This document shows, piece by piece, positions 21,235 through 58,104 of a stretch of DNA of 59,379 bases. This DNA comes from ANME-2 cluster archaeon (GTDB lineage: Archaea; Halobacteriota; Methanosarcinia; Methanosarcinales; Methanocomedenaceae), in the NCBI GenBank assembly GCA_014237145.1, contig JAAXOC010000003.1, positions 1 through 59,379 of the forward strand, in the 5' to 3' direction. The notes beneath the pieces are model-generated. The model did not search any database, was not told where the DNA came from, and was given only the letters and a program-made list of their open reading frames with translations. Made by a program: the position numbers and the translations under genes. Every line of letters begins with the position of its first letter. Position 1 is the first letter of the stretch.

Positions 21235-21549
21235 AGAGAATGCAACTGAATCGATGACTGTTACAGCTACAGCAGCAGTACTTCTAACACACTCGCTTTA
21301 AAATCTATATGCCGAGGTATGATTTGAAGCTGGAACCTTACACCTACAGTTTGAAATAACTAGAATTCGGCTGTTTTTGGGTGGGTCTATTGATAGTGGT
21401 TTTTAGATGGTTTAGCTTTAGGTTTTTGAGTAAAATCAAATGGGTGCGGATGTTTTTTAATCTCTCAAAGTCTGTTTGGTTCATATGAACCTATGTCAAG
21501 ATAAAGCCACTAACAACACCAAGTCGTATTCAAGTCAGGGGTCCAGCAA
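21235..21549. other. Intergenic region, nothing recognised
   Basis: No coding frame or clear structure. Its last 30 bases (ATAAAGCCACTAACAACACC then AAGTCGTATTCAAG) are shared with the flanks of the other PAPS-reductase-like copies at 31697 and 22465. Confidence 0.4.
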
Positions 21550-21880
21550 CTACCCCCCCAAAATCCTGCCCACATACCGAACAGCAACACATACCCCATC
21601 GCACACCCCGCACCCATCACACTCATCTCCCACCCTGATACGCCCATCCTCAAAACTAATAGCATGTTTCGGGCAGGCCTTCTCGCATATCCCGCACCCA
21701 GTACACTTCACCGCCCTCGTCACCTACCTGGCAGCCGCTTCAAAGAGCTTCTCAGTCGTCACCCTGTCCTCCACAGTGACCTGGAAGGTACCAGCCGTGT
21801 ACAGCTTCACACTCCCATCTCCTGCCAGGACCAGCAGCACACCCAGTTTTTCCGAATAACAGACCTCACCCAGCATTCTT
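21550..21880 (-). pseudogene. C-terminal relic of the PAPS-reductase-like ferredoxin enzyme
   Basis: The minus strand reads RMLGEVCYSEKLGVLLVLAG ... TTEKLFEAAAR, then a TAG, then VTRAVKCTGCGICEKACPKH, AISFEDGRIRVGDECDGCGV and a stop. It is collinear with the last 110 residues of the intact gene at 31744-33657. The TAG replaces the CAG (Gln) present in the intact copy. The flank after the stop is also shared with the other copies. Confidence 0.85.
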
Positions 21881-22383: not shown

Positions 22384-22500
22384 CAAAATCAACCGCACCC
22401 TACCTAAAACACTCAAAAATCAGGCGCACGTACACGAAAATAATGGAAGTGAAAGAACCGCACCATCAAATCGTATTCAAGCCAGTGGTGGGGTCCGTAA
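22384..22500. repeat. Non-coding repeat shared with 31182-31275
   Basis: AAAATCAACCGCA-CCTACCTAAAACACT, followed by AAAATCAGGCG and AAAATAATGGAAGTGA, recurs at 31182-31275 with about 80 percent identity. In this copy it runs directly into the 3' end of the dead PAPS-reductase-like copy. The bases 22195-22383 hold no recognisable gene. Confidence 0.65.
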
Positions 22501-23230
22501 CTACCCCTTTAAAATCCTGCCCACATACCTGACAGCAACACATACCTCATCGCACACCCTGCACCCATCACACTCATCCCCCACTCTGATGCGCCCATCC
22601 TCAAAACTAATAGCATGTTTCGGCAGGCCTTCTCGCATATCCCGCACCCCGTACACTTCAACGCCCTCGTCACCTGCCTGGCAGCCGCTTCAAAGAGCTT
22701 TTCAGTCGTCTCCCTGTCCCCCGAAGTGACCTGAAAAGTACCATCCGTGTACAGCTTCACACTCCCCACACCAGTCAGGACCACCAGCACACCCAGTTCC
22801 TCCGAATAACGGACCTCACCCCGCATTCTCATCATTTCCACAGCATCCACAGGCCTGACCCCCCTGGCAGTGCCCTCGATACTATATCCCCCGGCCTTGC
22901 ATGGAGATATACCCGAGACCACCCTTATCCGGAAAGCATCAGCTTCAGACCCTGCATCCTTTGGGATAATATCAATACCCAACTGCCGGGCCAGCAGTCG
23001 CATCTTAGGAGGATGCTCCCGCCAGCGCCAGAACCCGTGGTCAATGTAACCGCCCGGAAGTCCCATGTGCTCAGCCCAGTCTCGCAGGTATGTATCCCAC
23101 CTCTGGTACAGGTCAGGGTGCAGTTCAGGCATGCGGCGGAATTCCGCACCCAGGGCCGCCGGGCACAACCAGCAGCCCACCCGCTCGAACCCCATAGCAT
23201 ACATGGAATTGTATTCCTGGCCCCGCCTGT
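22501..23230 (-). pseudogene. 5'-truncated, frameshifted copy of the PAPS-reductase-like enzyme
   Basis: From about 23230 the minus strand encodes the second half of the enzyme: MYAMGFERVGCWLCPAALGA ... KCTGCGICEKAC. At 22621 one G is missing compared with the intact gene (TTTCGGCAGG versus TTTCGGGCAGG), and the frame then diverges from the ferredoxin end. Upstream of 23230 similarity ends abruptly at a junction with VapC-like sequence. It lacks the N-terminal domains and the PP-loop and is certainly dead. Confidence 0.9.
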
Positions 23231-23275
23231 GCTTTACATTGACCTGGAGATACTTGAGGACGGGCAGAATACTGT
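23231..23275 (+). pseudogene. Small fragment of a vapC-like gene
   Basis: CTTTACATTGACCTGGAGAT followed by ACTTGAGGACGGGCAG matches the vapC sequence at 23900-23940 and 27232-27265 (CTTTTCATTGACCAGGAGAT...). It marks the breakpoint where the truncated PAPS-reductase-like copy was joined to toxin-gene DNA. Confidence 0.55.
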
Positions 23276-23647: not shown

Positions 23648-24076
23648 ATGAGTATTTTTATAGATACAGGCATCTTTATTGCGTACGTTAACAGGAAGGA
23701 TAAGCATCATAGTGCCGCCACGGGCCTGCTTGAGAGCATAATGAAAAACAAGTATGGTGCAGCATTTACCTCTGACTTTGTTTTTAACGAATTGATGACT
23801 TTTATACTTTACAAGACAGGCGATGTCAAAAAAGCCGCACAATTGAGGGACATGATACTTGGAAATGAAAAGAAGGATATCCCGAGATTCATAAATATGC
23901 TTTTCATTGACCTGATAATTCTTGAAAAAGGGTGGATCATTTTCGCAAAATACGCTGATAAAAAGTTGAATTTTACTGACTGCTCAATAATCGAACTGAT
24001 GAAAAATAAGGGCATAGACCACCTGGCTAGTTTTGATGGTGGATTTGATGGAATAGTGTCAAGGATAAGGTACTGA
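23648..24076 (+). CDS. VapC-type PIN-domain ribonuclease toxin
   Basis: The 142-residue PIN protein starts MSIFIDTGIFIAYVNRKDKH. The acidic residues that hold Mg2+ are visible: Asp in FIDTG, Glu in FVFNELMTF, Asp in LNFTDCSIIELM and Asp in LASFDGGFDG. PIN toxins cleave tRNA or rRNA. The gene is intact and paired with the upstream antitoxin. A truncated copy of its 3' half lies at 27133-27408, again followed by an iron-sulfur flavoprotein gene, showing segmental duplication. Confidence 0.9.
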   Translation: MSIFIDTGIFIAYVNRKDKHHSAATGLLESIMKNKYGAAFTSDFVFNELMTFILYKTGDVKKAAQLRDMILGNEKKDIPRFINMLFIDLIILEKGWIIFAKYADKKLNFTDCSIIELMKNKGIDHLASFDGGFDGIVSRIRY

Positions 24077-24162
24077 TACTGCCACTGATATTTCAATAGA
24101 AAATCTCAATCTTTATCGGCAACATCATACGCAATCAAGTAAAGGACACCGCTTAGCTTTTT

Positions 24163-24248
24163 GACCGGATTTACAGGATTTACAGGATTTACAGGATGTT
24201 GAAGTTGCATTGTATCCTGTCAATCCTGTCAATCCTGTAAATCCCGTC
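24163..24248. repeat. Dyad-symmetric repeat (GGATTTACA iterated)
   Basis: GACCGGATTTACAGGATTTA and further iterations (24163-24197) face the complementary CCTGTCAATCCTGTCAATCC and GTAAATCCCGTC (24213-24248). The arms consist of three to four 9-base units GGATTTACA or GGATTGACA. It lies between vapC and the flavoprotein pseudogene and is absent from the duplicated segment at 27408-27464, so it arrived after the duplication or was lost from the other copy. Confidence 0.85.
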
Positions 24249-24311
24249 TGAAATTTTTACACTTCTTCGATTAATCTCACATATTTCCACAATCGCAATA
24301 ACTATACATTC

Positions 24312-24932
24312 TCAACCTTTTTTCGGGATATCCACACCCCTGATCACTCCCAGCATCTTCATCATCCGGTTCATGGTCTTGCGCATGGAACGCAGCCCCT
24401 CTTCATCCTCGGCCGCGCCTTCGGCCATCCGGTCCTGAGACCAGAACGTGCCGCCCAGGTTGGCACCGAACGAACCGTCGCCGACCGGTATCATCTCGCT
24501 GATGATATAGAAGTGGTGTATGGACTGGATGGCTATCTCCTGGCCGCCCACCCTGTCGCCGCCCACTGCCAGGGCTGCACCCACCTTGTTGCGCAGGATG
24601 TCGGGGTCTTTTGCCACCACTGCCCGGCAGCGGTCCAGCATGGTCTTGGTCTGGGCGCTCAGGTTGCCCTGGTACACCGGGGTACCGATTATGATACCGT
24701 CAGCCCATTCCAGGCCATCGTAGAACTCGGGCATGTTGTCTTTGTGGATGCAGCCGCTGCGCTCACGGATGCAGTAGTCGCAGTGGATGCAGAAGTTGAG
24801 GTGTTTGCCACGGGCTGGGAAGTAGCGGGTCTATGCACCGTATGTTTCCTCAAGGTATTTGAGGGCTTCATTTACAATATAATCTGTTGAGCCCTTCCTG
24901 GGGCTTCCTGAGACTTCGAAGATCTTTATCAT
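24312..24932 (-). pseudogene. Iron-sulfur flavoprotein gene with in-frame TAG at codon 34
   Basis: Reading from ATG 24932 gives MIKIFEVSGSPRKGSTDYIV, NEALKYLEETYGA, then TAG (24833-24831), then TRYFPARGKHLNFCIHCDYC and on to the normal end at 24312. The total of 207 codons equals the intact copy at 27464-28084, where codon 34 is CAA (Gln). Apart from the TAG the frame is fully open and conserved. An internal restart would give only about 140 residues without the cluster cysteines. Either a recent pseudogene or a gene read through at an amber codon. Confidence 0.8.
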
Positions 24933-24958
24933 GGTATGACTCCATGAAAAAAACCTTT

Positions 24959-26938
24959 CTATTTTTTTATTCCACTCCGTCTTTCGTAGTTAGCTCTCCA
25001 TTTCTCATAATTCTCTTTGAATATCGGTTCATTAGGTAAGAATTCCATAGCTTTACTATAAGCATTTAGAACCTCTGTTTCAGGGGAGCGCAGCCAAACC
25101 AAAGTCCTTGCAAGATCAAACCAACACCAAGCAGTCCTAATATTATCATCGGATAATTGTATAGCTCTATGTAATAGTTCAAGAGCTTCTTTGTTTAATC
25201 GTTTTCGAACATGTCCCCGCTCTTTTGATGCTAATTTCATCTTTGTTTGTGCAAATTCATGCACAGCTTTCTGATCCTCACGAAGAATATCAAAGTTAGA
25301 AGCAAAAACCTTGTGTGCTTCTTTAAATCTTCCAGCTCTTTTATATAATATCGCTAATTCAATTAATTCATCACCAGTTGTCGGAGAGGGAATCTCTTGA
25401 AGAATTGATGAAGCTTTTGATGCATTTTGAGTATTTAAATATGCTCTGGCCATCGCAAGATAAAGCAAATGCCTATCGATTAATTCAATGTTATTTCTAT
25501 TCTCATTAAACATATGTTCAGCTGAAGATAAGTCCCCCTGACCAGCTTTATACTCTATAAGTTGACCAATAAGTGCTCCAGATGTTGGAACTTTCGATAA
25601 AGCCTGTTCTAAATTTGCAAGGGCGCTTTTTTTATCCCCGGTGGCCCACAGATGGGCGCTATTACGTATAGAATGAATTACTACATATTGTGGATGTGCA
25701 GGCAGAATAACACGGAAATATGTTTTCTCTTTATCAAATTCGAATTTCGGTTCGGGTGAGCCATTTTCTTTCATTTTTCTTCGGATTTTCGGTATTCCGG
25801 TCCCCCTTCCTTCTGCAAGATCAAGTTCTTTCAGGAACTCCCCTATTCTTCTATTTCGACTTTGGACCGGAGGAACGACTCCACCTGTTTGTAAATGATG
25901 CATTTCAATACCGGGAACTGGTCCTGGATAACTGATTATTTCCATTCGGTCAGGATATAAATATACCTTGATAGGTTCATGAATTTCATAACTTCTATGA
26001 TAAACCGCATTCATAAGGGCTTCTTCCATTGCTTCATAAGGAAATGCAACTGCCTTTTGAGCTTCAGCTCTTCCTGGAATTTTCCTAATCATTGAAGTAC
26101 TGAAACTGTTTAAATAATCAAGTGCTTGTCTTGACTGGAAATGAATCGGGCCTTTGAAAACTTTTTCTTCGATAAGGTCCCCACCTGCATCATCACCAAA
26201 TTCAACGACTTCTATCTGGGTTCCTGGAAAATACTGGTCAGGATTTTCTGTGAAAAACAGTAATGCAATATTTCTTGGAGCTTCATGACTATTCATAGGT
26301 GAAACAATCTTCATATAGCGGTACAGATCCCTATCAGGAATTAACACATTTTCAGCAACCAAATCACTCCTGATATCAGTAAGATACTTCCTGACGAGGG
26401 AAGAAGATATAATATCGACTGGAATAGAGTTGTTTCGCCGATCATCAAAAGGAATTTTTGCAGTCATTTGCATTAGCTGTGTTAAAATATCTCCTCTTGC
26501 TTGAACCGACTCACTTCCCTGGCGAACATAGTAAGCTCTGGTACCTTCTTTGAATTTTATTGGAGCCTGGTAAGGTCTTAATTCTCCACCTGGAACCCAG
26601 AGTACAAGAATTTGTTTTTCCATATAAACTTCCGGTGAAATTACTGGTTGATATTCCGGATCTATTCTCTTACAATTACCTCGTACTTGCTTTTGGATTT
26701 CGTCTAAATTCTGGTCTTCTAATCCGTATGGAGGAAGAATTGGTTGTCCATTCTTTTCTTCAATACCTATAATGATATATCCACCATTTAAATTGAAAAA
26801 ATCATTAGCAAAAGCACAAATGCTATGGATGACATTCTCTAAAACAGGTTCGGACCAGGTTTTTTTAAATTCACGTCTGACTGATTCCACGGATCGGGCA
26901 AATATCAAATCATCGAGGTTTATTGGTAATATCTTCAT
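24959..26938 (-). CDS. AlbA_2 / ATP-binding regulator with C-terminal TPR repeats
   Basis: The 659-residue protein starts with an AlbA_2 (Schlafen-like) domain (residues 15-130: ANDFFNLNGGYIIIGIEEKN). A C-terminal HATPase_c_4-like domain of the RecG-related ATP-binding family follows (EEALMNAVYHRSYEIHEPIK near 305; EGRGTGIPKIRRKMKENGSP near 375). From about residue 425 comes a helical region with TPR-like repeats (GDKKSALANLEQALSKVPTS; YKRAGRFKEAHKVFASNFDI). Relatives are transcription regulators or defence-linked proteins; the target is unknown. The gene is inserted between the two copies of the vapC-flavoprotein duplication. Confidence 0.8.
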   Translation of the reverse strand: MKILPINLDDLIFARSVESVRREFKKTWSEPVLENVIHSICAFANDFFNLNGGYIIIGIEEKNGQPILPPYGLEDQNLDEIQKQVRGNCKRIDPEYQPVISPEVYMEKQILVLWVPGGELRPYQAPIKFKEGTRAYYVRQGSESVQARGDILTQLMQMTAKIPFDDRRNNSIPVDIISSSLVRKYLTDIRSDLVAENVLIPDRDLYRYMKIVSPMNSHEAPRNIALLFFTENPDQYFPGTQIEVVEFGDDAGGDLIEEKVFKGPIHFQSRQALDYLNSFSTSMIRKIPGRAEAQKAVAFPYEAMEEALMNAVYHRSYEIHEPIKVYLYPDRMEIISYPGPVPGIEMHHLQTGGVVPPVQSRNRRIGEFLKELDLAEGRGTGIPKIRRKMKENGSPEPKFEFDKEKTYFRVILPAHPQYVVIHSIRNSAHLWATGDKKSALANLEQALSKVPTSGALIGQLIEYKAGQGDLSSAEHMFNENRNNIELIDRHLLYLAMARAYLNTQNASKASSILQEIPSPTTGDELIELAILYKRAGRFKEAHKVFASNFDILREDQKAVHEFAQTKMKLASKERGHVRKRLNKEALELLHRAIQLSDDNIRTAWCWFDLARTLVWLRSPETEVLNAYSKAMEFLPNEPIFKENYEKWRANYERRSGIKK

Positions 26939-27132: not shown

Positions 27133-27408
27133 AATACTTTTGTGATAATAAAAAATATCACAAAGGCCGCATAATTGAGGGACATCATACTTTGTAATGA
27201 AAAGAAGGATATCCCGAGGTTCATAAATATGCTTTTCATTGACCAGGAGATACTTGAAAGAGGGTGGATTACTTTCGCAAAAAACGCAGACAAGAAGCTG
27301 AGTTTTACTGACTGCTCAATAATCGAACTGATGAAAAATAAGGGCATAGACCACCTGGCCAGTTTTGATGGTGGATTTGATGGAATTGTGTCAAGGATAA
27401 GGTACTGA
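27133..27408 (+). pseudogene. 3' fragment of a vapC toxin gene (second copy)
   Basis: Sequence from about 27133 matches the second half of the intact vapC (23806-24076) and ends with the identical FDGGFDGIVSRIRY. The codon CAA of the intact gene (AAQLRDMI) is TAA here. The N-terminal half with two catalytic acids and the antitoxin gene are missing, so it is inactive. Confidence 0.85.
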
Positions 27409-27463
27409 TACTGCCATTGAGCATTGTACTTCCTATGCAGTACAATCCGGCAGTTGCTGATTC

Positions 27464-28084
27464 TCAACCTTTTTTCGGCATATCCTCACCCCTAACCACT
27501 CCCAGCGCCTTCATCATCCGGTTCATGGTCTTGCGCATGGAACGCAGCCCCTCTTCATCCTCTGCCGCGCCCTCAGCCATCCTGTCCTGAGACCAGAAGG
27601 TCCCGCCCAGGTTGGCACCGAACGAACCACCGCCGACCGGTATCATCTCGCTGATGATATAGAAGTGGTGTATGGACTGGATGGCTATCTCCTGGCCGCC
27701 CACCCTGTCGCCGCCTACTGCCAGGGCTGCACCCACCTTATTGCGCAGGATGTCGGGGTCCTTAGCCACCACGGCCCGGCAGCGGTCCAGCATGGTCTTG
27801 GTCTGGGCGCTCAGGTTGCCCTGGTATACGGGGGTGCCGATGATGATGCCATCCGCCCATTCCAGGCCGTCGTAGAACTCCTGCATGTCGTCCTTGTGGA
27901 TGCAGCCGCTGCGCTCCTGGACGCAGTGGTCGCAGTGGATGCAGAAGTTGAGGTGTTTGCCACGGGCTGAGAAGTAGCGGGTTTGGACACTGTATTTTTC
28001 CTTAAGGTATTTGAGGGCTTCATTCACAATGTAATCTGTTGAGCCCTTCCTGGGGCTTCCTGAGACTCCAAAGATCTTTATCAT
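27464..28084 (-). CDS. Iron-sulfur flavoprotein (Isf-type, NADPH-dependent FMN reductase fold)
   Basis: The intact 206-residue copy begins MIKIFGVSGSPRKGSTDYIV, an FMN-binding P-loop. It then shows the Isf cluster motif FCIHCDHCVQERSGCIHKDD (compact CxxCxxC...C for a [4Fe-4S] cluster) and the flavodoxin-like core (IIIGTPVYQGNLSAQTKTML). Isf proteins of Methanosarcina transfer electrons from ferredoxin and reduce O2 or peroxide, so this would be a further redox-defence enzyme. It is followed on the other strand by the vapC fragment and has a twin with an amber codon at 24312-24932. Confidence 0.9.
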   Translation of the reverse strand: MIKIFGVSGSPRKGSTDYIVNEALKYLKEKYSVQTRYFSARGKHLNFCIHCDHCVQERSGCIHKDDMQEFYDGLEWADGIIIGTPVYQGNLSAQTKTMLDRCRAVVAKDPDILRNKVGAALAVGGDRVGGQEIAIQSIHHFYIISEMIPVGGGSFGANLGGTFWSQDRMAEGAAEDEEGLRSMRKTMNRMMKALGVVRGEDMPKKG

Positions 28085-28224
28085 GGTATGACTCCCTGAA
28101 AAATCTGTGTTTTTATTTATGGGTATAAAGGTTTATAAGTATTGATTGTGGGATGCTTTCTGAAATTGTTTAGGAAACTTTATATTTAGGTGGGTTTTAT
28201 AGCATAGTTTAGATAAAACATGAA

Positions 28225-28396: not shown

Positions 28397-30991
28397 TTAA
28401 GAAGCCACGTTTTCAAAAATCAGGTGATCGTTAATTTCATCAAGAAATTTGCTTTCTCTACCTTCTTGTGTATAAATTATTGCTTCTTCTTTTGCTCTTG
28501 TTATCGCAACATAAAACAATCGCCTCTCTTCTTCCTCTTTTTCTTTTCTACTACCCTTGATAGCAGGTTCAAAAATGTCAGGATTTTCTAATTCACTGGG
28601 AAAACCATAAAGACCTTCAACAACATCAAAAATGAAAACAACCTTTGCTTGCAAACCCTTACTTTTATGAACTGACATAAAGGGAACGCTGTTGGAATAT
28701 TTTAATTCTGTGGAAATGCTTACACCCTTGGTGTTTGCATATTCAAATAATTTCTCCCTCAATCTGGGATTGCTTACGATTCTGGCAAGAATCATAATAT
28801 CCGCTGGTTCATATCCGTTTTGCCTGTATGCCTCTATTTTATTGACACAATGTTGAACCATCTGGCCGTAATAGACCATCTGGTTGGCATAATTTGATTT
28901 ATGGGTAGACTGTTGTTCAAATGAATACACTGTTACAGGTATCACACTTTCATCATTAGCCAAGGTTTTCTTTTTCAGTTGAGATGAACCATTTTGTTTT
29001 ATGATCTCTGCACCGGTGTCAACAATTGATTTAACACTTCTATAATTGACAGTTAGATCAGTTCTGGCAGGATGGTCAAAGTAATCAGAGAAATTAACAA
29101 AAAAATCAAGATCAGAACCTGCAAAACCCATAATGCTTTGCCAATCATCACCAACAGAAAATAGTTTACAATTACTATTTTTGTCCATTAATGATTTGAT
29201 AAGTTCATACCTTTGCGCACTGATATCTTGATACTCATCTATGAGAATGTGGTCTAAAATGTCTTTATATAAGGTCTCATTTTGTTTCAGTTCTTTTACA
29301 GCAAGATTAATCATATCTGAAAAATCAATTTGGTTTTTAGAACGCAAATCATTTTCATAAGTGGTGTAAATCTTAATAGCCAGATGAACAAATGCTTTCT
29401 GTTTTTGAGACCACCTTTCATTTGATAATCTTTTTTCAATATCTGCTGGCGATAAACTATATGTTTTAGCAATGGTTATGAAGGTTCCAATGTTCAAAGG
29501 CAATTTTTCTATAGATTTCCGGCAATCCTCCCACACTTTGGAAATCAGCTTTTTATAAGGCACAGGTGAGAATTTGAAATCTTTGTCAGGATACTTTTCC
29601 TTTAACGCTTCTAACATCTTATTTTGAAGATTTTGAATAAACTCCTTTTCTTTAAATTCCCAATATGTAGTTTCAACTAAAGAATATTTGTTTTGTTCAG
29701 CAAATGCTTTTTTCTTTGCGTTCATATCTCGGTTATATTTTTCAGAGGGATTGTCACCTTCAAACCATTCTGGAACCTTTCCATTTTTATCTGTGCCCCA
29801 ATGCTCTATATACAGGTCATAGTCAGGAAAGAAAAAATCTGGTCTCGGAGTATTATATTCCCCATTTTCCCCAATGTACTTCATCCATTCAGCAGGATTT
29901 TCATAAAGAATCCGTATCTTACTCTCATTTAAATCATGCGTTATGAAAAAATTAATTATTGCCCTTTCTGCCTCACTCTTTACTTTTGTACCATCAAGTG
30001 CAGTATAAGTCAAATTGCGCATATACTTGTAATATTCTTCTTTTTCTTCAAAGGCAGTTTTAGGCTTAGCTTTTTCATTATTCCCATATGATTTCATATA
30101 ATTGATAATATCATTTTGGAATTCTGCATCCTTTTGAGCATCGTTATAAGTAGAAATGATCCGACTTCGATAGCGATTCTCGAAATTGCCCCCTATTAGT
30201 TGCATGTCAGGTAAATCTCTATTTGAGTCTTTATATGACTGTTTTAAAATTTGCAAACCAAATGAATGAAAGGTTTTTACTTCTACGTCCGTATCAAATC
30301 TTTCATTTAGCCTATTTCTTATTTCCTGTGCGGCTTTATTCTGATATGCAAGAACCAGGATTCTTTTTGGATTTATTGTGTCTGGTTTTCTTTCAATAAG
30401 ATAAGCAATCCGTGTTATCAACACTTCCGTCTTTCCAGAACCAGCCCCTGCAACTACTAAATTATGCGTATCGTCAATAATTACAGCCTTTTTTTGAGAA
30501 TCGTCTAAAGGGAAAGGAGATTTCTTAAATAAATAGTCGTATTCGTTCATCCTTTTTTCAACAAAATATTCATTCGAAAAGTTTACAACATTTTTTTTGA
30601 ATACTGAAATTGCAAAAGAGGATTCAGTAACAAAGCGAATGAACGAACTTTGAAAAAATACGTTGTTTGATTTTAAAAATGAAAGCGAATCCAAACAAAA
30701 ATCACATCTTTTAATTAAGTCTCTTCGTGTATGATAGGTTAGATACGTGTCGTTTATTGACTCATGGATATCCTTTATATGCACAATCCATTTTTTTATA
30801 TCATTTTCGACATTCTCAAGGATTTCCTCTTTCAATGACGTTAAATTTCTTTTTTGTTGAGTAGCTTTTCTAATTATAAGAACACCCAACAATACAGGTA
30901 TTAAAAGAAAACCAAGTATTATCAATCGGTTTTGGTGTTTTATTTTTGAGATTATGCCTTTAAGCTCTGTGAGATTATCATCCAATGTCAT
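28397..30991 (-). CDS. Membrane-anchored UvrD/Rep-type helicase with inserted nuclease domain
   Basis: The 864-residue protein has a transmembrane helix at residues 23-40 (LIILGFLLIPVLLGVLII) and a helical linker. The superfamily 1 helicase core shows Walker A AGAGSGKT (181-188), motif Ia LVLAYQNKAAQEI, Walker B/motif II ILIDEYQDIS, motif III FSVGDDWQSIMGFAG, motif V VPFMSVHKSKGLQAKVVFIF and motif VI FYVAITRAKEEAII. Between motif Ia and motif II lies an insert (about 330-450) with E340, RPDFFFPDYDLYIEHWG (D385, E396) and K402, which fits a PD-(D/E)XK nuclease. It is likely a DNA-processing or defence helicase near the membrane. It has no partner genes. Confidence 0.82.
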   Translation of the reverse strand: MTLDDNLTELKGIISKIKHQNRLIILGFLLIPVLLGVLIIRKATQQKRNLTSLKEEILENVENDIKKWIVHIKDIHESINDTYLTYHTRRDLIKRCDFCLDSLSFLKSNNVFFQSSFIRFVTESSFAISVFKKNVVNFSNEYFVEKRMNEYDYLFKKSPFPLDDSQKKAVIIDDTHNLVVAGAGSGKTEVLITRIAYLIERKPDTINPKRILVLAYQNKAAQEIRNRLNERFDTDVEVKTFHSFGLQILKQSYKDSNRDLPDMQLIGGNFENRYRSRIISTYNDAQKDAEFQNDIINYMKSYGNNEKAKPKTAFEEKEEYYKYMRNLTYTALDGTKVKSEAERAIINFFITHDLNESKIRILYENPAEWMKYIGENGEYNTPRPDFFFPDYDLYIEHWGTDKNGKVPEWFEGDNPSEKYNRDMNAKKKAFAEQNKYSLVETTYWEFKEKEFIQNLQNKMLEALKEKYPDKDFKFSPVPYKKLISKVWEDCRKSIEKLPLNIGTFITIAKTYSLSPADIEKRLSNERWSQKQKAFVHLAIKIYTTYENDLRSKNQIDFSDMINLAVKELKQNETLYKDILDHILIDEYQDISAQRYELIKSLMDKNSNCKLFSVGDDWQSIMGFAGSDLDFFVNFSDYFDHPARTDLTVNYRSVKSIVDTGAEIIKQNGSSQLKKKTLANDESVIPVTVYSFEQQSTHKSNYANQMVYYGQMVQHCVNKIEAYRQNGYEPADIMILARIVSNPRLREKLFEYANTKGVSISTELKYSNSVPFMSVHKSKGLQAKVVFIFDVVEGLYGFPSELENPDIFEPAIKGSRKEKEEEERRLFYVAITRAKEEAIIYTQEGRESKFLDEINDHLIFENVAS

Positions 30992-31699: not shown

Positions 31700-31743
31700 A
31701 GCCACTGACAACACCAAGCCGTATTCAAGCCAGGGGTCCGTAA

Positions 31744-33657
31744 CTACCCCTCTAAAATCCTGCCCACATACCGAACAGCCACACATACCTCATCGCACAC
31801 CCCGCACCCATCACACTGCTCCGACACCCTGATGCGCCTATCCTCAAAACTAATAGCATGTTTCGGGCAGGCCTTCTCGCATATCCCGCAACCAGTACAC
31901 TTCACCGCCCTCGTCAACTGCCTGGCAGCCGCTTCAAAAAGCTTCTCAGTCGTCCCCCTGTCCCCCGCAGTGACCTGGAAAGTACCATCCGTGTACAGCT
32001 TCACACTCCCTCCACCTGTCAGGACCACCAGCACACCCAGTTCATCCGAATAACGGACCTCACCCAGCATCCGCATCATTTCCACAGCACCCACTGGCCT
32101 GGCCCCCCTGGCAGTGCCCTCAATACTGTACCCGCCGGCCTTGCATGGAGATATGCCCGAGACCACCCTTATACGGAAAGCCTCAGCCTCAGACCCTGCA
32201 TCCTTTGGGACAATATCAATACCCAACTGCCGGGCCAGCAATTTCATCTTGGGGGGATGCTCCCGCCAGCGCCAGAACCCATGGTCGATGTACCCGCCCG
32301 GGAGCCCCAGGCTCCCAGCCCAGTCACGCAGGTATGTATCCCACTTCTGGTACAGGTCAGGGTGCAGCTCAAGCATGCGCCGGAATTCCGCACCCAGGGC
32401 CGCCGGGCACAGCCAGCAGCCCACCCGCTCGAACCCCATGTCGTACAGTGGATTATATTCCAGGCCCCGCCAGTGTATGTACAGCCACACCTCAAGCGCA
32501 CGCCAGTCGCGGATGGGATACACATTCACCTGCCCCGGCACCAGTGGATTTCCCTCAGTGGCAGGGATGCGGGCACGGCTGAATGATTCGTACTTACGCT
32601 TGCCATCAATGGTCAGGTAATTTCCCTTCTCTGGTATCTCACCAGCAGGGGCCAGCTTGCAGACCTTGCAGCACCACCTGTAATCCTTGGCAGGGGGCCC
32701 GAAATCTGGCAAGTGCTGCCAGAACACATCCCCTGCATCCAGCTCATCCAGGTCAATGTCATTATCATGGCAAAACTGCCGCGCATATTCCACAGTCTCA
32801 GGGAATTCCAGGCCAGTGTTGATGAAATATGCCTTAGGGCTGTGTTTCAATGCGCTTTTGGTCAGGTCCAGCACCACCAGGCTGTCCTTACCGCCGCTGA
32901 AGGACACATACACGGGTCTACCACGGTATTCCTGCTGGTTGGCCATGCCCTTTACAGTGTTCATGGCATTTTTGCCCAGGCGTTTGATGGCAGGTGCGTT
33001 AGCCCTGACAACCTTGTCCATTATGGGAACCACATCCTTTAACCGGGCCCGGCTTTTCCCTATCTTCCTGACCCTGACCGCAGGTGTGGCGGTTAGTTTC
33101 ATCGCTTTGGCATCCAGCAGTGCAAAACCCACACCCGTCATTTTGCCCTTCCTGACAATGATATCATCACCCTGCCTGATATCATCCGAACACCACTGTA
33201 TCATATCAGAACTAACGGTCTTGCCGCTGAGATGGCCGGGAACATCTGACAGCTCAACGGTCCTGTGCCTGGTATATTGTGCCATAAGGGCAGCCCCATC
33301 CATTGAAAGGTCGAACTGCCAGTCCAGGATTTTCAGGTCAAAGCGCAGTATCCCAAACACCAGGGCGTCCACTATTACCTGGTCGGTCTTATCCTCACCA
33401 CCAATTTTATTGAGCAGGATAATACGCTCACCCAGCGGGTCAATGCCGTAGCGGGCAGTCAGGATATCATGCAGGATGCCGCGCTCGTAAGGTGAGCCAA
33501 ACTGCACATCTCCGGGCAGTCCCAGGTCAATTCTCTCGCCTGTTGAACCACATAGTGCACACTCGATACTGATAAGCGGGAGATTGCAGTTCGGGCACCA
33601 GTGAATGAATGCATCTTTTCCGGGTTTGAATTGTCTTTTATTACGTTGTTCGGTCAT
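31744..33657 (-). CDS. PAPS-reductase-family enzyme with zinc ribbon, PUA-like and ferredoxin domains
   Basis: The intact 637-residue protein has an N-terminal zinc ribbon (WCPNCNLPLISIECALCGST), a PUA-like segment near 170-215 (GDDIIVRKGKMTGVGFALLD), and a PAPS-reductase PP-loop domain (VYVSFSGGKDSLVVLDLTKS near 240) with DYRWCCKVCKLAP. It ends with two ferredoxin motifs (CTGCGICEKACPKHAISFED; CDGCGVCDEVCVA). This multi-domain form is typical of methanogens and is thought to act in sulfur assimilation or transfer; the substrate is not proven. Two dead partial copies lie at 21550 and 22501, all sharing the same downstream flank. It is the only functional copy in the window. Confidence 0.88.
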   Translation of the reverse strand: MTEQRNKRQFKPGKDAFIHWCPNCNLPLISIECALCGSTGERIDLGLPGDVQFGSPYERGILHDILTARYGIDPLGERIILLNKIGGEDKTDQVIVDALVFGILRFDLKILDWQFDLSMDGAALMAQYTRHRTVELSDVPGHLSGKTVSSDMIQWCSDDIRQGDDIIVRKGKMTGVGFALLDAKAMKLTATPAVRVRKIGKSRARLKDVVPIMDKVVRANAPAIKRLGKNAMNTVKGMANQQEYRGRPVYVSFSGGKDSLVVLDLTKSALKHSPKAYFINTGLEFPETVEYARQFCHDNDIDLDELDAGDVFWQHLPDFGPPAKDYRWCCKVCKLAPAGEIPEKGNYLTIDGKRKYESFSRARIPATEGNPLVPGQVNVYPIRDWRALEVWLYIHWRGLEYNPLYDMGFERVGCWLCPAALGAEFRRMLELHPDLYQKWDTYLRDWAGSLGLPGGYIDHGFWRWREHPPKMKLLARQLGIDIVPKDAGSEAEAFRIRVVSGISPCKAGGYSIEGTARGARPVGAVEMMRMLGEVRYSDELGVLVVLTGGGSVKLYTDGTFQVTAGDRGTTEKLFEAAARQLTRAVKCTGCGICEKACPKHAISFEDRRIRVSEQCDGCGVCDEVCVAVRYVGRILEG

Positions 33658-55779: not shown

Positions 55780-58104
55780 ATGATGAAAAAAAACTATCTT
55801 ATTTATTTAGATATTCTTGGATTTGAAAATTTAGCTGAAGTTATAAGTGAAAAGAAGGGAATAGAATCAAGGAAGATAAGACAGGATTTTATTAATGTAA
55901 TAAAAGAAAGAGTTGAGTCGATAGAAGAAAAGGGGAAGATAATCGGTAAGCATTATGGAAAAAAAGACGACTGGATTTTGGTTACAGACACTATTGATAA
56001 TGCATTCAGTGTTATTTATGATATTTTGAATCACAACACTGGCTATAAGGATTATGAGAGAATACCTTTTGAGATTGCTGTTGGAACAGGAGAATTTGAC
56101 AATTGGGCACGGTTTGAAGGAGAGAAACTTATAGTTGAAAACGAAATAATAAAGTTTCTGAAGTCATATATTGTCGATTATTACCGTAAATGGTATAAAA
56201 AGAATAATGATGATCAAAAAATAAAATCTACTTTTCTAATTTTTACAGAGACTGCATATGAAGAATTAGACCCATTGGACAAAAAAAAGTGCCAACAAAT
56301 TTCATATGACGACAATAAGGTAGAAGTTGTTTTTTTTGCTTTCAATGTTGATAAAATTAGCCAAATAGGTAAAACTTTTGAATTTCTAGAAAAAATTGAA
56401 TATGTGGGCAATATATGGTATGGGAGAATTGATGAATTATACGTTCCACCAATAGGATTCGAAGACATCGCTAATACGTTGAAAGAAAAAAGAATTGTTT
56501 TTATAACGGGGACTCAAGAAATAGGGAAGACATATACGGCTGTAATGCTTCTGTGGATTTACTATAAAAATGGATATGAACCTAAATGGATTAAGGGAGG
56601 AGAGTTTGTAGAAAGAGTTCAGGTTAGGAAAGCACTAGAAAATATTAGAAAAGAATTGAAGCCGGGGTGCGTTCTTTATTTTGAGAATCCTTTTGGGAAA
56701 ACTAAATATGAAAGAAGAGAAGGTTTAGAAAGAGAAATTTGGGCCATAATCGATAGTGTAGAGCATGTAAAGGATGTTTATGTAATAATAACTTCAAGGG
56801 AGGAAATCTTTAAGGAATTTGAAAAAGAAAAATTATCAGTAAGAAATCTTAGAGATTTTGAGAATAAATTGAACATAAAAAAACCATCATATGATTACGA
56901 AAGAAGGAGTCAAATAATTCTGAAGTATGCTGAAGAAATGAAATGTAAATGGTATGAAGATGATAAATTAAAAGAATTTGTATTAGAATCTATCAAACAT
57001 GAAAATATTTTACCAACTCCTCTAAGTATGAGAGATTTTGCTGGAGCAACGACCAATGTAAAAAAAGAAAAAGAGATTATTATAAAACTGGAAGAAAAAT
57101 CAAATGAGACAGCAAAGGCCTTTACAAGGGAAATTGAGAATATGACCAACGATAAGATATTATTCTTATCATTCCCGTTCATTTCAAGATATTTCGAAAT
57201 TCCATTTGTTAAAGCAATGTACGAAGATTTAGTAAGGGAATTAGGTCTAAAAGAAGTCTGGAATTTTGATACGGTCTTTAATTGGTTTAAAGATGACAAA
57301 ATTAATATTAAAAATAAGTATATAGAATTTTCTCACTCTTCGTATTCTGAAGCATTAAAATATCTACTTATTGAACACAATATATATAACGAGTTATTTA
57401 TTAAAATATTGGATAAACTTTCTGAAAGAGATGAGTCTGCAATTCATATTGCATTGTTTATTAGAGATAATTTCGATATCCTTCCTGAAAATTCAAGGCA
57501 TGAATTATTGTTACAACTATCTGAGAAAAAGGTGTGTAGTCAAGCAATTATATTAGCATTGGCAGAAAATTGCCATAAGATTTCTGCGAATTTGAGGAAC
57601 GAGTTATTTTCTAAATTAATCAAAAAAGGTGTAATTAGAAAATTAAATGTTGAAGATTGTAGCGAAGAATTTGAGTGTGGCGATGCAAGAATAGACAAAA
57701 TTCCCCTTTCATATTACTTTGAGAATCAGGAACATACAAAGGCCAAAGTCTATTGCGTTGAAGATAAAGACAAGATTTGCTCATTAATTCAATTTTATGA
57801 AAAGAAATCTTATGGATATAATGAATTGTTTTTGGATATAATTGCATCATCGCAAGGCGAGACAGGATATGCCCAATCATTGCTTAAGTTGATTTTAGGT
57901 ATTATGTTTTACGATAAATTTGATTTCATTTCTGGTTATATATTTGACAATAAGGAATTGATTGAAATGTATCAAAGTATAGGATTCAATATAATCGAGA
58001 CAGTTGAGGATCCTCTTTACGGCACATTCCATAAAATAGTATTAGTCAACGAAAATAAGAACAATAAAGAAAGCGTGATTGAAACGATTAGAGATTCTAT
58101 ATAA
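55780..58104 (+). CDS. Nucleotide-cyclase-like / STAND NTPase / GNAT-like fusion protein
   Basis: The 774-residue protein has three parts. (1) Residues 5-195 resemble a class III nucleotide-cyclase or related domain: LIYLDILGFENLAEVI (like FADIVGF), KKDDWILVTDTIDNAFSVIY, IPFEIAVGTGEFDNW. (2) Residues 215-610 form a STAND-type NTPase (nSTAND3-like): Walker A GTQEIGKT (244-251), Walker B CVLYFENPFG (about 297-306), sensor VIITSREEIF, then a helical region. (3) Residues 618-765 resemble a GNAT domain: FECGDARIDKIPLSYYFENQ, GYAQSLLKLILGIMFYD, DNKELIEMYQSIGFNII. STAND proteins sense signals, often phage components, and switch on effector domains. The gene is lone, very AT-rich, and lies between leuS and the hypusine gene. 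Family assignments are by motif only. Confidence 0.6.
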   Translation: MMKKNYLIYLDILGFENLAEVISEKKGIESRKIRQDFINVIKERVESIEEKGKIIGKHYGKKDDWILVTDTIDNAFSVIYDILNHNTGYKDYERIPFEIAVGTGEFDNWARFEGEKLIVENEIIKFLKSYIVDYYRKWYKKNNDDQKIKSTFLIFTETAYEELDPLDKKKCQQISYDDNKVEVVFFAFNVDKISQIGKTFEFLEKIEYVGNIWYGRIDELYVPPIGFEDIANTLKEKRIVFITGTQEIGKTYTAVMLLWIYYKNGYEPKWIKGGEFVERVQVRKALENIRKELKPGCVLYFENPFGKTKYERREGLEREIWAIIDSVEHVKDVYVIITSREEIFKEFEKEKLSVRNLRDFENKLNIKKPSYDYERRSQIILKYAEEMKCKWYEDDKLKEFVLESIKHENILPTPLSMRDFAGATTNVKKEKEIIIKLEEKSNETAKAFTREIENMTNDKILFLSFPFISRYFEIPFVKAMYEDLVRELGLKEVWNFDTVFNWFKDDKINIKNKYIEFSHSSYSEALKYLLIEHNIYNELFIKILDKLSERDESAIHIALFIRDNFDILPENSRHELLLQLSEKKVCSQAIILALAENCHKISANLRNELFSKLIKKGVIRKLNVEDCSEEFECGDARIDKIPLSYYFENQEHTKAKVYCVEDKDKICSLIQFYEKKSYGYNELFLDIIASSQGETGYAQSLLKLILGIMFYDKFDFISGYIFDNKELIEMYQSIGFNIIETVEDPLYGTFHKIVLVNENKNNKESVIETIRDSI

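What the first reader, a model, noticed from the sequence alone, without database searches (positions are those of the whole stretch)
28397..30991. UvrD-type helicase with a membrane anchor and a nuclease domain within the helicase core
A hydrophobic helix at residues 23-40 precedes the helicase, and residues 330-450 carry an E...PDFFFPDY..IEHWG pattern between motif Ia and motif II. A membrane-tethered helicase-nuclease could degrade incoming DNA at the cell envelope or act in DNA uptake. No partner genes are present.
Basis: partly seen in the sequence, partly recalled or inferred. Interest (0 to 1): 0.5.

Follow-up and report, generated by a model that had tools for sequence, protein, structure and literature searches.

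The report
Membrane-anchored DNA helicase with inserted nuclease
An archaeal gene encodes a DNA-unwinding motor that carries a DNA-cutting domain inside it and probably a membrane anchor, and similar proteins occur sporadically in archaea and bacteria, so it may cut DNA close to the cell membrane.

Summary
The gene lies on the minus strand (28397-30991, 864 aa) in a methanogen-like archaeal genome. It is an SF1A helicase, nearest by sequence to DNA helicase IV, with intact motifs. Residues about 336-462 are an extra domain absent from E. coli HelD. Its predicted structure (pLDDT 91) has the PD-(D/E)XK fold and resembles I-Bth0305I, Vsr and TnsA. E342, E364, D385 and E396 are identical in 42 of 42 relatives. 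The same module also occurs at the C-terminus of a different SF1 helicase and stand-alone. The N-terminal hydrophobic helix (residues 23-41) is matched by 8 of 10,000 shuffles, and about half of 38 family members, archaeal and bacterial, have one; Lokiarchaeal members lack it. No neighbour gene recurs; the gene is sporadic, AT-rich and truncated in a close relative. Best explanation: a membrane-tethered, single-gene helicase-nuclease of the accessory genome, most likely acting on incoming DNA. Nuclease fold and anchor are well supported by computation; the biological role is inference, and defence-island enrichment was not shown. New variant of a known kind (SF1 helicase-nuclease fusion).

The parts
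28397..30991 (-). Whole gene, 864 aa, SF1A (UvrD/Rep/helicase IV-like) helicase with inserted nuclease domain
30869..30925 (-). N-terminal hydrophobic helix, residues 23-41, predicted membrane anchor; arginine and lysine follow it
   Evidence: AlphaFold helices 2-29 and 35-79 with a break near P32
29987..30508 (-). Helicase first part, residues 162-335; Walker A GAGSGKT at 30428-30448
29606..29986 (-). Inserted Vsr-like PD-(D/E)XK domain, residues about 336-462
29837..29839 (-). D385, predicted metal ligand (PDF motif)
   Evidence: 42 of 42
29804..29806 (-). E396, predicted metal ligand (IEHW motif)
   Evidence: 42 of 42
29966..29968 (-). E342, conserved glutamate of the first helix
   Evidence: 42 of 42
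29900..29902 (-). E364, conserved glutamate (YE)
   Evidence: 42 of 42
29714..29716 (-). K426, candidate catalytic lysine on the helix after the sheet
   Evidence: K in 37 of 42, A in 5 of 42
28418..29554 (-). Rest of helicase (residues 480-858), motif II DEYQD at 29225-29239, motif VI region

Best explanation
A single-gene, membrane-tethered helicase-nuclease of the accessory genome. The N-terminal helix holds the protein at the inner face of the membrane (helicase in the cytoplasm). The helicase IV-like SF1A motor, presumably 3'-5', moves on and unwinds DNA, and the Vsr-like PD-(D/E)XK domain, inserted where UvrD-type helicases carry subdomain 1B, cuts the DNA as it passes, using D385/E396 (with E342 or E364, and K426) and a divalent metal. 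The most likely use is to destroy foreign DNA near the membrane (entering virus or plasmid DNA). Shown by computation: helicase with intact motifs, nuclease fold, conserved acidic residues, a recurrent hydrophobic N-terminal helix, sporadic distribution, no partner. Inferred: catalysis, polarity, topology, position at the duplex side, and the defence role.
For: Helicase: (UvrD, PcrA, Rep among the best folds, E about 1e-19 to 1e-16). Nuclease: insert-only model pLDDT 91.0, pTM 0.84; VIA-align Z 9.7 I-Bth0305I catalytic domain (rmsd 2.5, 98 aligned), 9.2 putative endonuclease NGO0050, 8.4 Vsr, 7.3 TnsA, 7.3 Bax1; 25 viral predicted structures at E <= 0.001, several named DUF559, VSR, homing or restriction endonucleases; PADLOC HEAT_CxxC_PD-DEXK matches the insert alone at 1.2e-7. 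E342, E364, D385, E396 in 42 of 42. Module moves: C-terminal in an AAA_11/AAA_12 helicase of 881 aa and stand-alone. Anchor: 18 of 38 members including this one reach a Kyte-Doolittle mean of 1.6 or more, 20 of 38 once two rows cut at their N-terminus (L112, L118) are replaced by the full proteins (L024, L144), against 0 of 30 SF1A control helicases. Accessory gene: 5 of 60 relatives, own genome included; 19 of 392 phylum genomes with the inserted form, own included; GC 0.330 against 0.436 for the window; truncated in a congeneric genome; 77 plasmid records with a homologue.
Against: No assay exists. Foldseek against PDB gave no match at E <= 0.001 for the insert (0 of 132); support comes from VIA-align, BFVD and the PADLOC profile. 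Fold neighbours include a FASTKD4 RAP module and mitoribosomal proteins, so the fold alone does not prove cutting. The E-x-K lysine is replaced (W398), and K426 is absent in 5 of 42. About half of the members fall below the anchor threshold; the six Lokiarchaeal members with a complete N-terminus (L009, L010, L011, L013, L014, L016) and two same-order proteins, L021 and L023, lack it. The control helicases mostly have short N-termini (29 of 30 under 65 residues), so 0 of 30 is a weak control. PADLOC hits near the gene (95 proteins, 10 loci) were not clearly more than in control stretches (124 proteins, 10 loci).
Confidence: 0.5

Rival explanations
1. A DNA repair or recombination helicase-nuclease (RecB/AddA- or UvrD-Cas4-like in action) that processes breaks or stalled forks, with the anchor only placing it at membrane-associated replication or segregation sites.
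For: SF1A helicase with nuclease is the RecB/AddA logic; AddAB and RecBCD appear among the fold matches; no defence enrichment. The Cas4 paper describes UvrD-nuclease fusions and discusses both repair and defence (passages).
Against: Sporadic, absent from most relatives, truncated in a close relative, on plasmids: unlike a housekeeping repair enzyme.
Confidence: 0.28
2. A function of mobile elements themselves (replication, host-DNA breakdown or competition between elements), not host defence.
For: 77 plasmid records hold a homologue at E <= 1e-30; five homologues covering most of the helicase in IMG/VR contigs, one beside two serine integrases, one near a replication initiation protein and one near a DNA methyltransferase.
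Against: Most archaeal copies found lie in genome contigs without a recurring mobile-element gene set.
Confidence: 0.2
3. The N-terminal helix is not a membrane anchor but an oligomerisation or coiled-coil element of a soluble helicase-nuclease.
For: AlphaFold puts it in a long helical N-terminal region; many relatives lack hydrophobicity there.
Against: Uncharged stretch from residue 23 to 40 with basic residues right after it; different hydrophobic sequences at the same place in bacteria and archaea.
Confidence: 0.15
4. The inserted domain is a degenerate, non-cutting DNA-binding relative of the nuclease fold.
For: No lysine at the canonical E-x-K place; weak Foldseek PDB scores; a RAP module shares the fold.
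Against: Four acidic residues identical in 42 of 42, over archaea and bacteria.
Confidence: 0.12

Closest known systems
E. coli DNA helicase IV (HelD; NCBIfam PRK11054)
   Same: Best NCBIfam match (1.7e-86); aligns over the helicase core
   Different: Score 291 is below the curated cut-off 543; HelD lacks the nuclease insert
Vsr / DUF559 / I-Bth0305I / TnsA group of PD-(D/E)XK nucleases
   Same: Fold; conserved D and E on neighbouring strands
   Different: IEHW in place of the usual E-x-K or (recalled) E-L-D-G; inserted in a helicase
HEAT_CxxC_PD-DEXK, PDC-S69, PDC-S68 (PADLOC candidates)
   Same: Share the nuclease module: the first two match the insert itself, PDC-S68 the stand-alone copies
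   Different: Different partner domains (by name or length); candidate status, untested here
UvrD-Cas4-like fusions, RecB, AddA
   Same: SF1 helicase plus PD-(D/E)XK nuclease on one chain (passages read)
   Different: There a Cas4/RecB-like nuclease is fused to the helicase; here the domain is inside the helicase and Vsr-like
SNIPE (PMC13190303, abstract and section 9 read)
   Same: N-terminal membrane helix of low sequence conservation plus nuclease; 59% of SNIPE homologues have one predicted membrane helix
   Different: SNIPE has GIY-YIG and DUF4041; no helicase is described in what I read
Nhi (PMC12904381, passages read)
   Same: Single-gene nuclease-helicase defence
   Different: Not among the 25 best PADLOC rows shown of 43; no membrane anchor mentioned in the passages read

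Membership tests
SF1A UvrD/Rep helicases | UvrD-helicase profile over cut-off and intact Walker A, motif II, motif VI | tested here: met
   PF00580 178.5 bits against cut-off 23; motifs
DNA helicase IV (PRK11054 equivalog) | score over curated cut-off 543 | tested here: not met
   291.2 bits
PD-(D/E)XK superfamily | core fold (helix, sheet, helix, strand) | tested here: met
PD-(D/E)XK superfamily | conserved D and D/E on adjacent strands | tested here: met
   D385 and E396 42 of 42
PD-(D/E)XK superfamily | lysine of the E-x-K motif | tested here: inconclusive
   W at E+2; K426 on the next helix in 37 of 42, Ala in 5
PD-(D/E)XK superfamily | metal-dependent DNA cleavage | not testable with these tools
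   needs an assay
SNIPE | GIY-YIG nuclease and DUF4041 | tested here: not met
   no such Pfam match at E <= 1 in the whole protein
Gabija GajB | GajA partner gene adjacent | tested here: not met
   GajB profiles match the shared helicase core; the six neighbouring window proteins scanned between 22509 and 33657 are a PAPS reductase and a fragment of it, a PIN protein, two FMN reductases and an AlbA_2/HATPase/TPR protein, no OLD-type ATPase-nuclease
Nhi | match to Nhi profile | tested here: inconclusive
   only the best 25 of 43 PADLOC families were shown; none of these is Nhi
Integral membrane protein | membrane localisation | not testable with these tools
   hydropathy only

The most novel reading that the evidence does not exclude
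A widespread, so far unnamed family of membrane-tethered helicase-nucleases, shared by archaea and bacteria, that seizes, unwinds and cuts foreign DNA as it crosses the membrane: the helicase-driven counterpart of SNIPE, with archaea among its users.
Probability: 0.3. Interest if true: 0.75.

Novelty: new variant of a known kind. Interest (0 to 1): 0.5.

Why it matters
If true, a single archaeal or bacterial gene would tell foreign from own DNA by place (the membrane) and add a motor to the nuclease. It would give archaea, where defence is poorly charted, a testable one-gene system, and it points to a nuclease module without a Pfam family of its own (only sub-threshold or unrelated matches) that has moved between two kinds of SF1 helicase.

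Tried and rejected
Plus-strand reading: rejected, full of stops. Chance hydrophobicity: 8 of 10,000 shuffles. K402 as catalytic lysine: rejected. Known defence system with partners: no recurring neighbour in 38 loci. Defence-island enrichment: PADLOC at E <= 1e-15 on 95 neighbour proteins of 10 loci (given out of 151 from 15 loci) against 124 control proteins of 10 loci (out of 192 from 15): 56 against 68 families in all, only the first 25 of each shown; near the gene Cas12f profiles (two proteins; the Halorhabdus stretch L024 has an annotated TnpB there), Csx1-, BrxD- and SngB/SngC-like proteins, in the control a type I restriction locus. Inconclusive. Pfam for the insert: Phage_endo_I in 5 of 16 members at best 0.0049, other single matches taken as chance. 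Foldseek-PDB for the insert: weak. Absence of a family from the VIA list is not taken as evidence. Papers: answered searches; none of the listings showed a paper on a helicase IV-type protein with an inserted nuclease or a membrane anchor; most were seen as listings only; passages read in PMC12904381, PMC5704561, PMC12988326, PMC4158269; abstract and section 9 of PMC13190303. Most subscription journals are not in the library.

In the family count, ORFs without a matching Walker A pattern upstream of the domain were left out of the 38-row anchor table (14 ORFs listed, among them the split L020, the truncated L035, L032, L128 and L127/L157), and identical cores were counted once. Of those left out, the full-length forms L157, L153 and L032 show no hydrophobic stretch of 1.6 (for L153 and L032 the best window was the Walker A strand). 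Several rows are close relatives, so counts are not independent events.

Full report
What is there. The finding's coordinates enclose one ORF on the minus strand, ATG to stop, 864 aa. The window is the start of contig 3 of a 2.97-Mb genome in 118 contigs; a fragment 95% identical comes from a Methanosarcinales MAG. The protein is an SF1A helicase (PF00580, 2.9e-52), nearest to DNA helicase IV (1.7e-86 but below the curated cut-off). All main helicase motifs are intact, and the full model (pLDDT 83.8, pTM 0.73) is closest to UvrD, PcrA and Rep structures.

The insert. Alignment with E. coli HelD and 15 homologues shows that residues about 316-470 hold sequence that HelD lacks. Modelled alone with an alignment of 16 sequences, the domain is confident (pLDDT 91.0, pTM 0.84). 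In BFVD 25 models match at E <= 0.001, several named DUF559, VSR, homing or restriction endonucleases. The insert alone matches the PADLOC profile HEAT_CxxC_PD-DEXK (1.2e-7). Against this stand the weak Foldseek scores in PDB (no match at E <= 0.001) and the missing lysine at E+2.

A module that moves. A profile of the insert searched in 392 phylum genomes matched 26 at E <= 1e-8. Nineteen of these, the own genome included, are strong matches in long ORFs of the inserted type. The other seven match weakly: on reading, three ORFs of 1068-1405 aa and one of 881 aa carry the domain at the C-terminus of another type of SF1 helicase (for the 881-aa one Pfam confirms AAA_11/AAA_12; the others were judged by eye), one is a 309-aa piece at a contig end, and two are short ORFs of 152 and 232 aa with cysteine pairs.

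The anchor. Residues 23-41 reach a hydropathy mean of 2.81, seen in 8 of 10,000 shuffles. Of 38 family members, 18 (this one included) have a stretch of at least 1.6 upstream of the helicase, in 17 of the 18 beginning within the first 65 residues of the open frame and in Hymenobacter at about residue 132. Two of the other 20 rows (L112, L118) were cut at their N-terminus; their full forms reach 1.66 and 3.01 (L024, L144), which makes 20 of 38. They include methanogen relatives, other archaeal families, Paenisporosarcina and Hymenobacter plasmids and IMG/VR contigs. The hydrophobic letters differ between the groups while the place is similar. In L117, L029 and L031 basic residues follow the helix, which by the positive-inside rule (established knowledge) puts the helicase in the cytoplasm; in the window protein basic residues lie on both sides. 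Six Lokiarchaeal members with a complete N-terminus, L006, L021, L023, the haloarchaeal L028 and L126, and the Acinetobacter and Polaromonas proteins lack it. Control SF1A helicases: 0 of 30, but 29 of 30 have under 65 residues before the helicase.

Spread and setting. Homologues occur in 5 of 60 relatives at E <= 1e-60, own genome included, and in 77 plasmid records at E <= 1e-30. The tree of 36 proteins joins the window protein with same-order and other archaeal copies; bacterial copies fall in another part, together with three archaeal ones (L114, L117, L128). Insert-less E. coli HelD falls beside insert-bearing bacterial proteins, but on a very long branch, so loss of the insert is only a suggestion. 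GC of the gene is 0.330 against 0.436 for the window. A congeneric genome keeps only the part from about residue 508 on, at a contig start, and L020 is split by an in-frame TGA. No neighbour family recurs in more than 4 of 38 loci. PADLOC tallies near the gene and in control stretches do not differ clearly.

Mechanism. Shown here: motor, nuclease fold, conserved acidic site, recurrent hydrophobic helix, single-gene accessory life. Inferred: the motor feeds DNA past the nuclease domain, which sits where UvrD-type helicases have subdomain 1B (recalled), and the anchor restricts action to DNA near the membrane. SNIPE is the precedent for such spatial self/non-self distinction (PMC13190303, abstract and section 9); Nhi is a precedent for single-gene nuclease-helicase defence (PMC12904381, passages). 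I put the defence reading at about one half, ahead of repair.

Novelty. Helicase-nuclease fusions are well known (UvrD-Cas4-like, RecB; PMC5704561, passages). An internal Vsr-like domain in a helicase IV-type protein with a membrane anchor was not found in my nine answered literature searches. Hence: new variant of a known kind, interest 0.5.

Noticed in passing
L137:2477-5119, L133, L134, L135: A second type of SF1 helicase with long coiled coil and cysteine pairs carries the same nuclease module at its C-terminus in several archaea; the 881-aa one also matches MkoA (PADLOC, 8.8e-79).
   Followed up: partly
window 22472-23231 and 31720-32475 (also 21501-21876): Repeated pieces of a PAPS-reductase/ferredoxin gene (about 90% identical) bracket the stretch that holds the helicase gene; the intact copy is at 31744-33657.
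   Followed up: partly
window 23823-24951 and 27155-28103: PIN and FMN-reductase segments are duplicated (91-93%) on either side of an AlbA_2/HATPase/TPR gene (24959-26938); in the sister fragment L007 a single copy follows the helicase remnant and the AlbA gene is not matched, so it looks like a recent insertion or duplication.
   Followed up: partly
window 24158-24253: Inverted repeat with 40-nt arms (88% complementary) made of short repeated units.
   Followed up: no
L020 (G056:C73): Homologue split by one in-frame TGA just before the nuclease domain; either decay or a sequencing error.
   Followed up: no
L025 (Acinetobacter pittii plasmid): Homologue lies near multiubiquitin-domain, ThiF-family and DUF6527 genes and another UvrD-type gene.
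   Followed up: no
L024 (Halorhabdus tiamatea plasmid pHTIA): Homologue of 1537 aa with a long extra N-terminal part, beside DUF5797, DEAD/DEAH helicase and SNF2 genes.
   Followed up: no
window 55780-58104: The most AT-rich of 30 ORFs measured in the window (GC 0.297).
   Followed up: no
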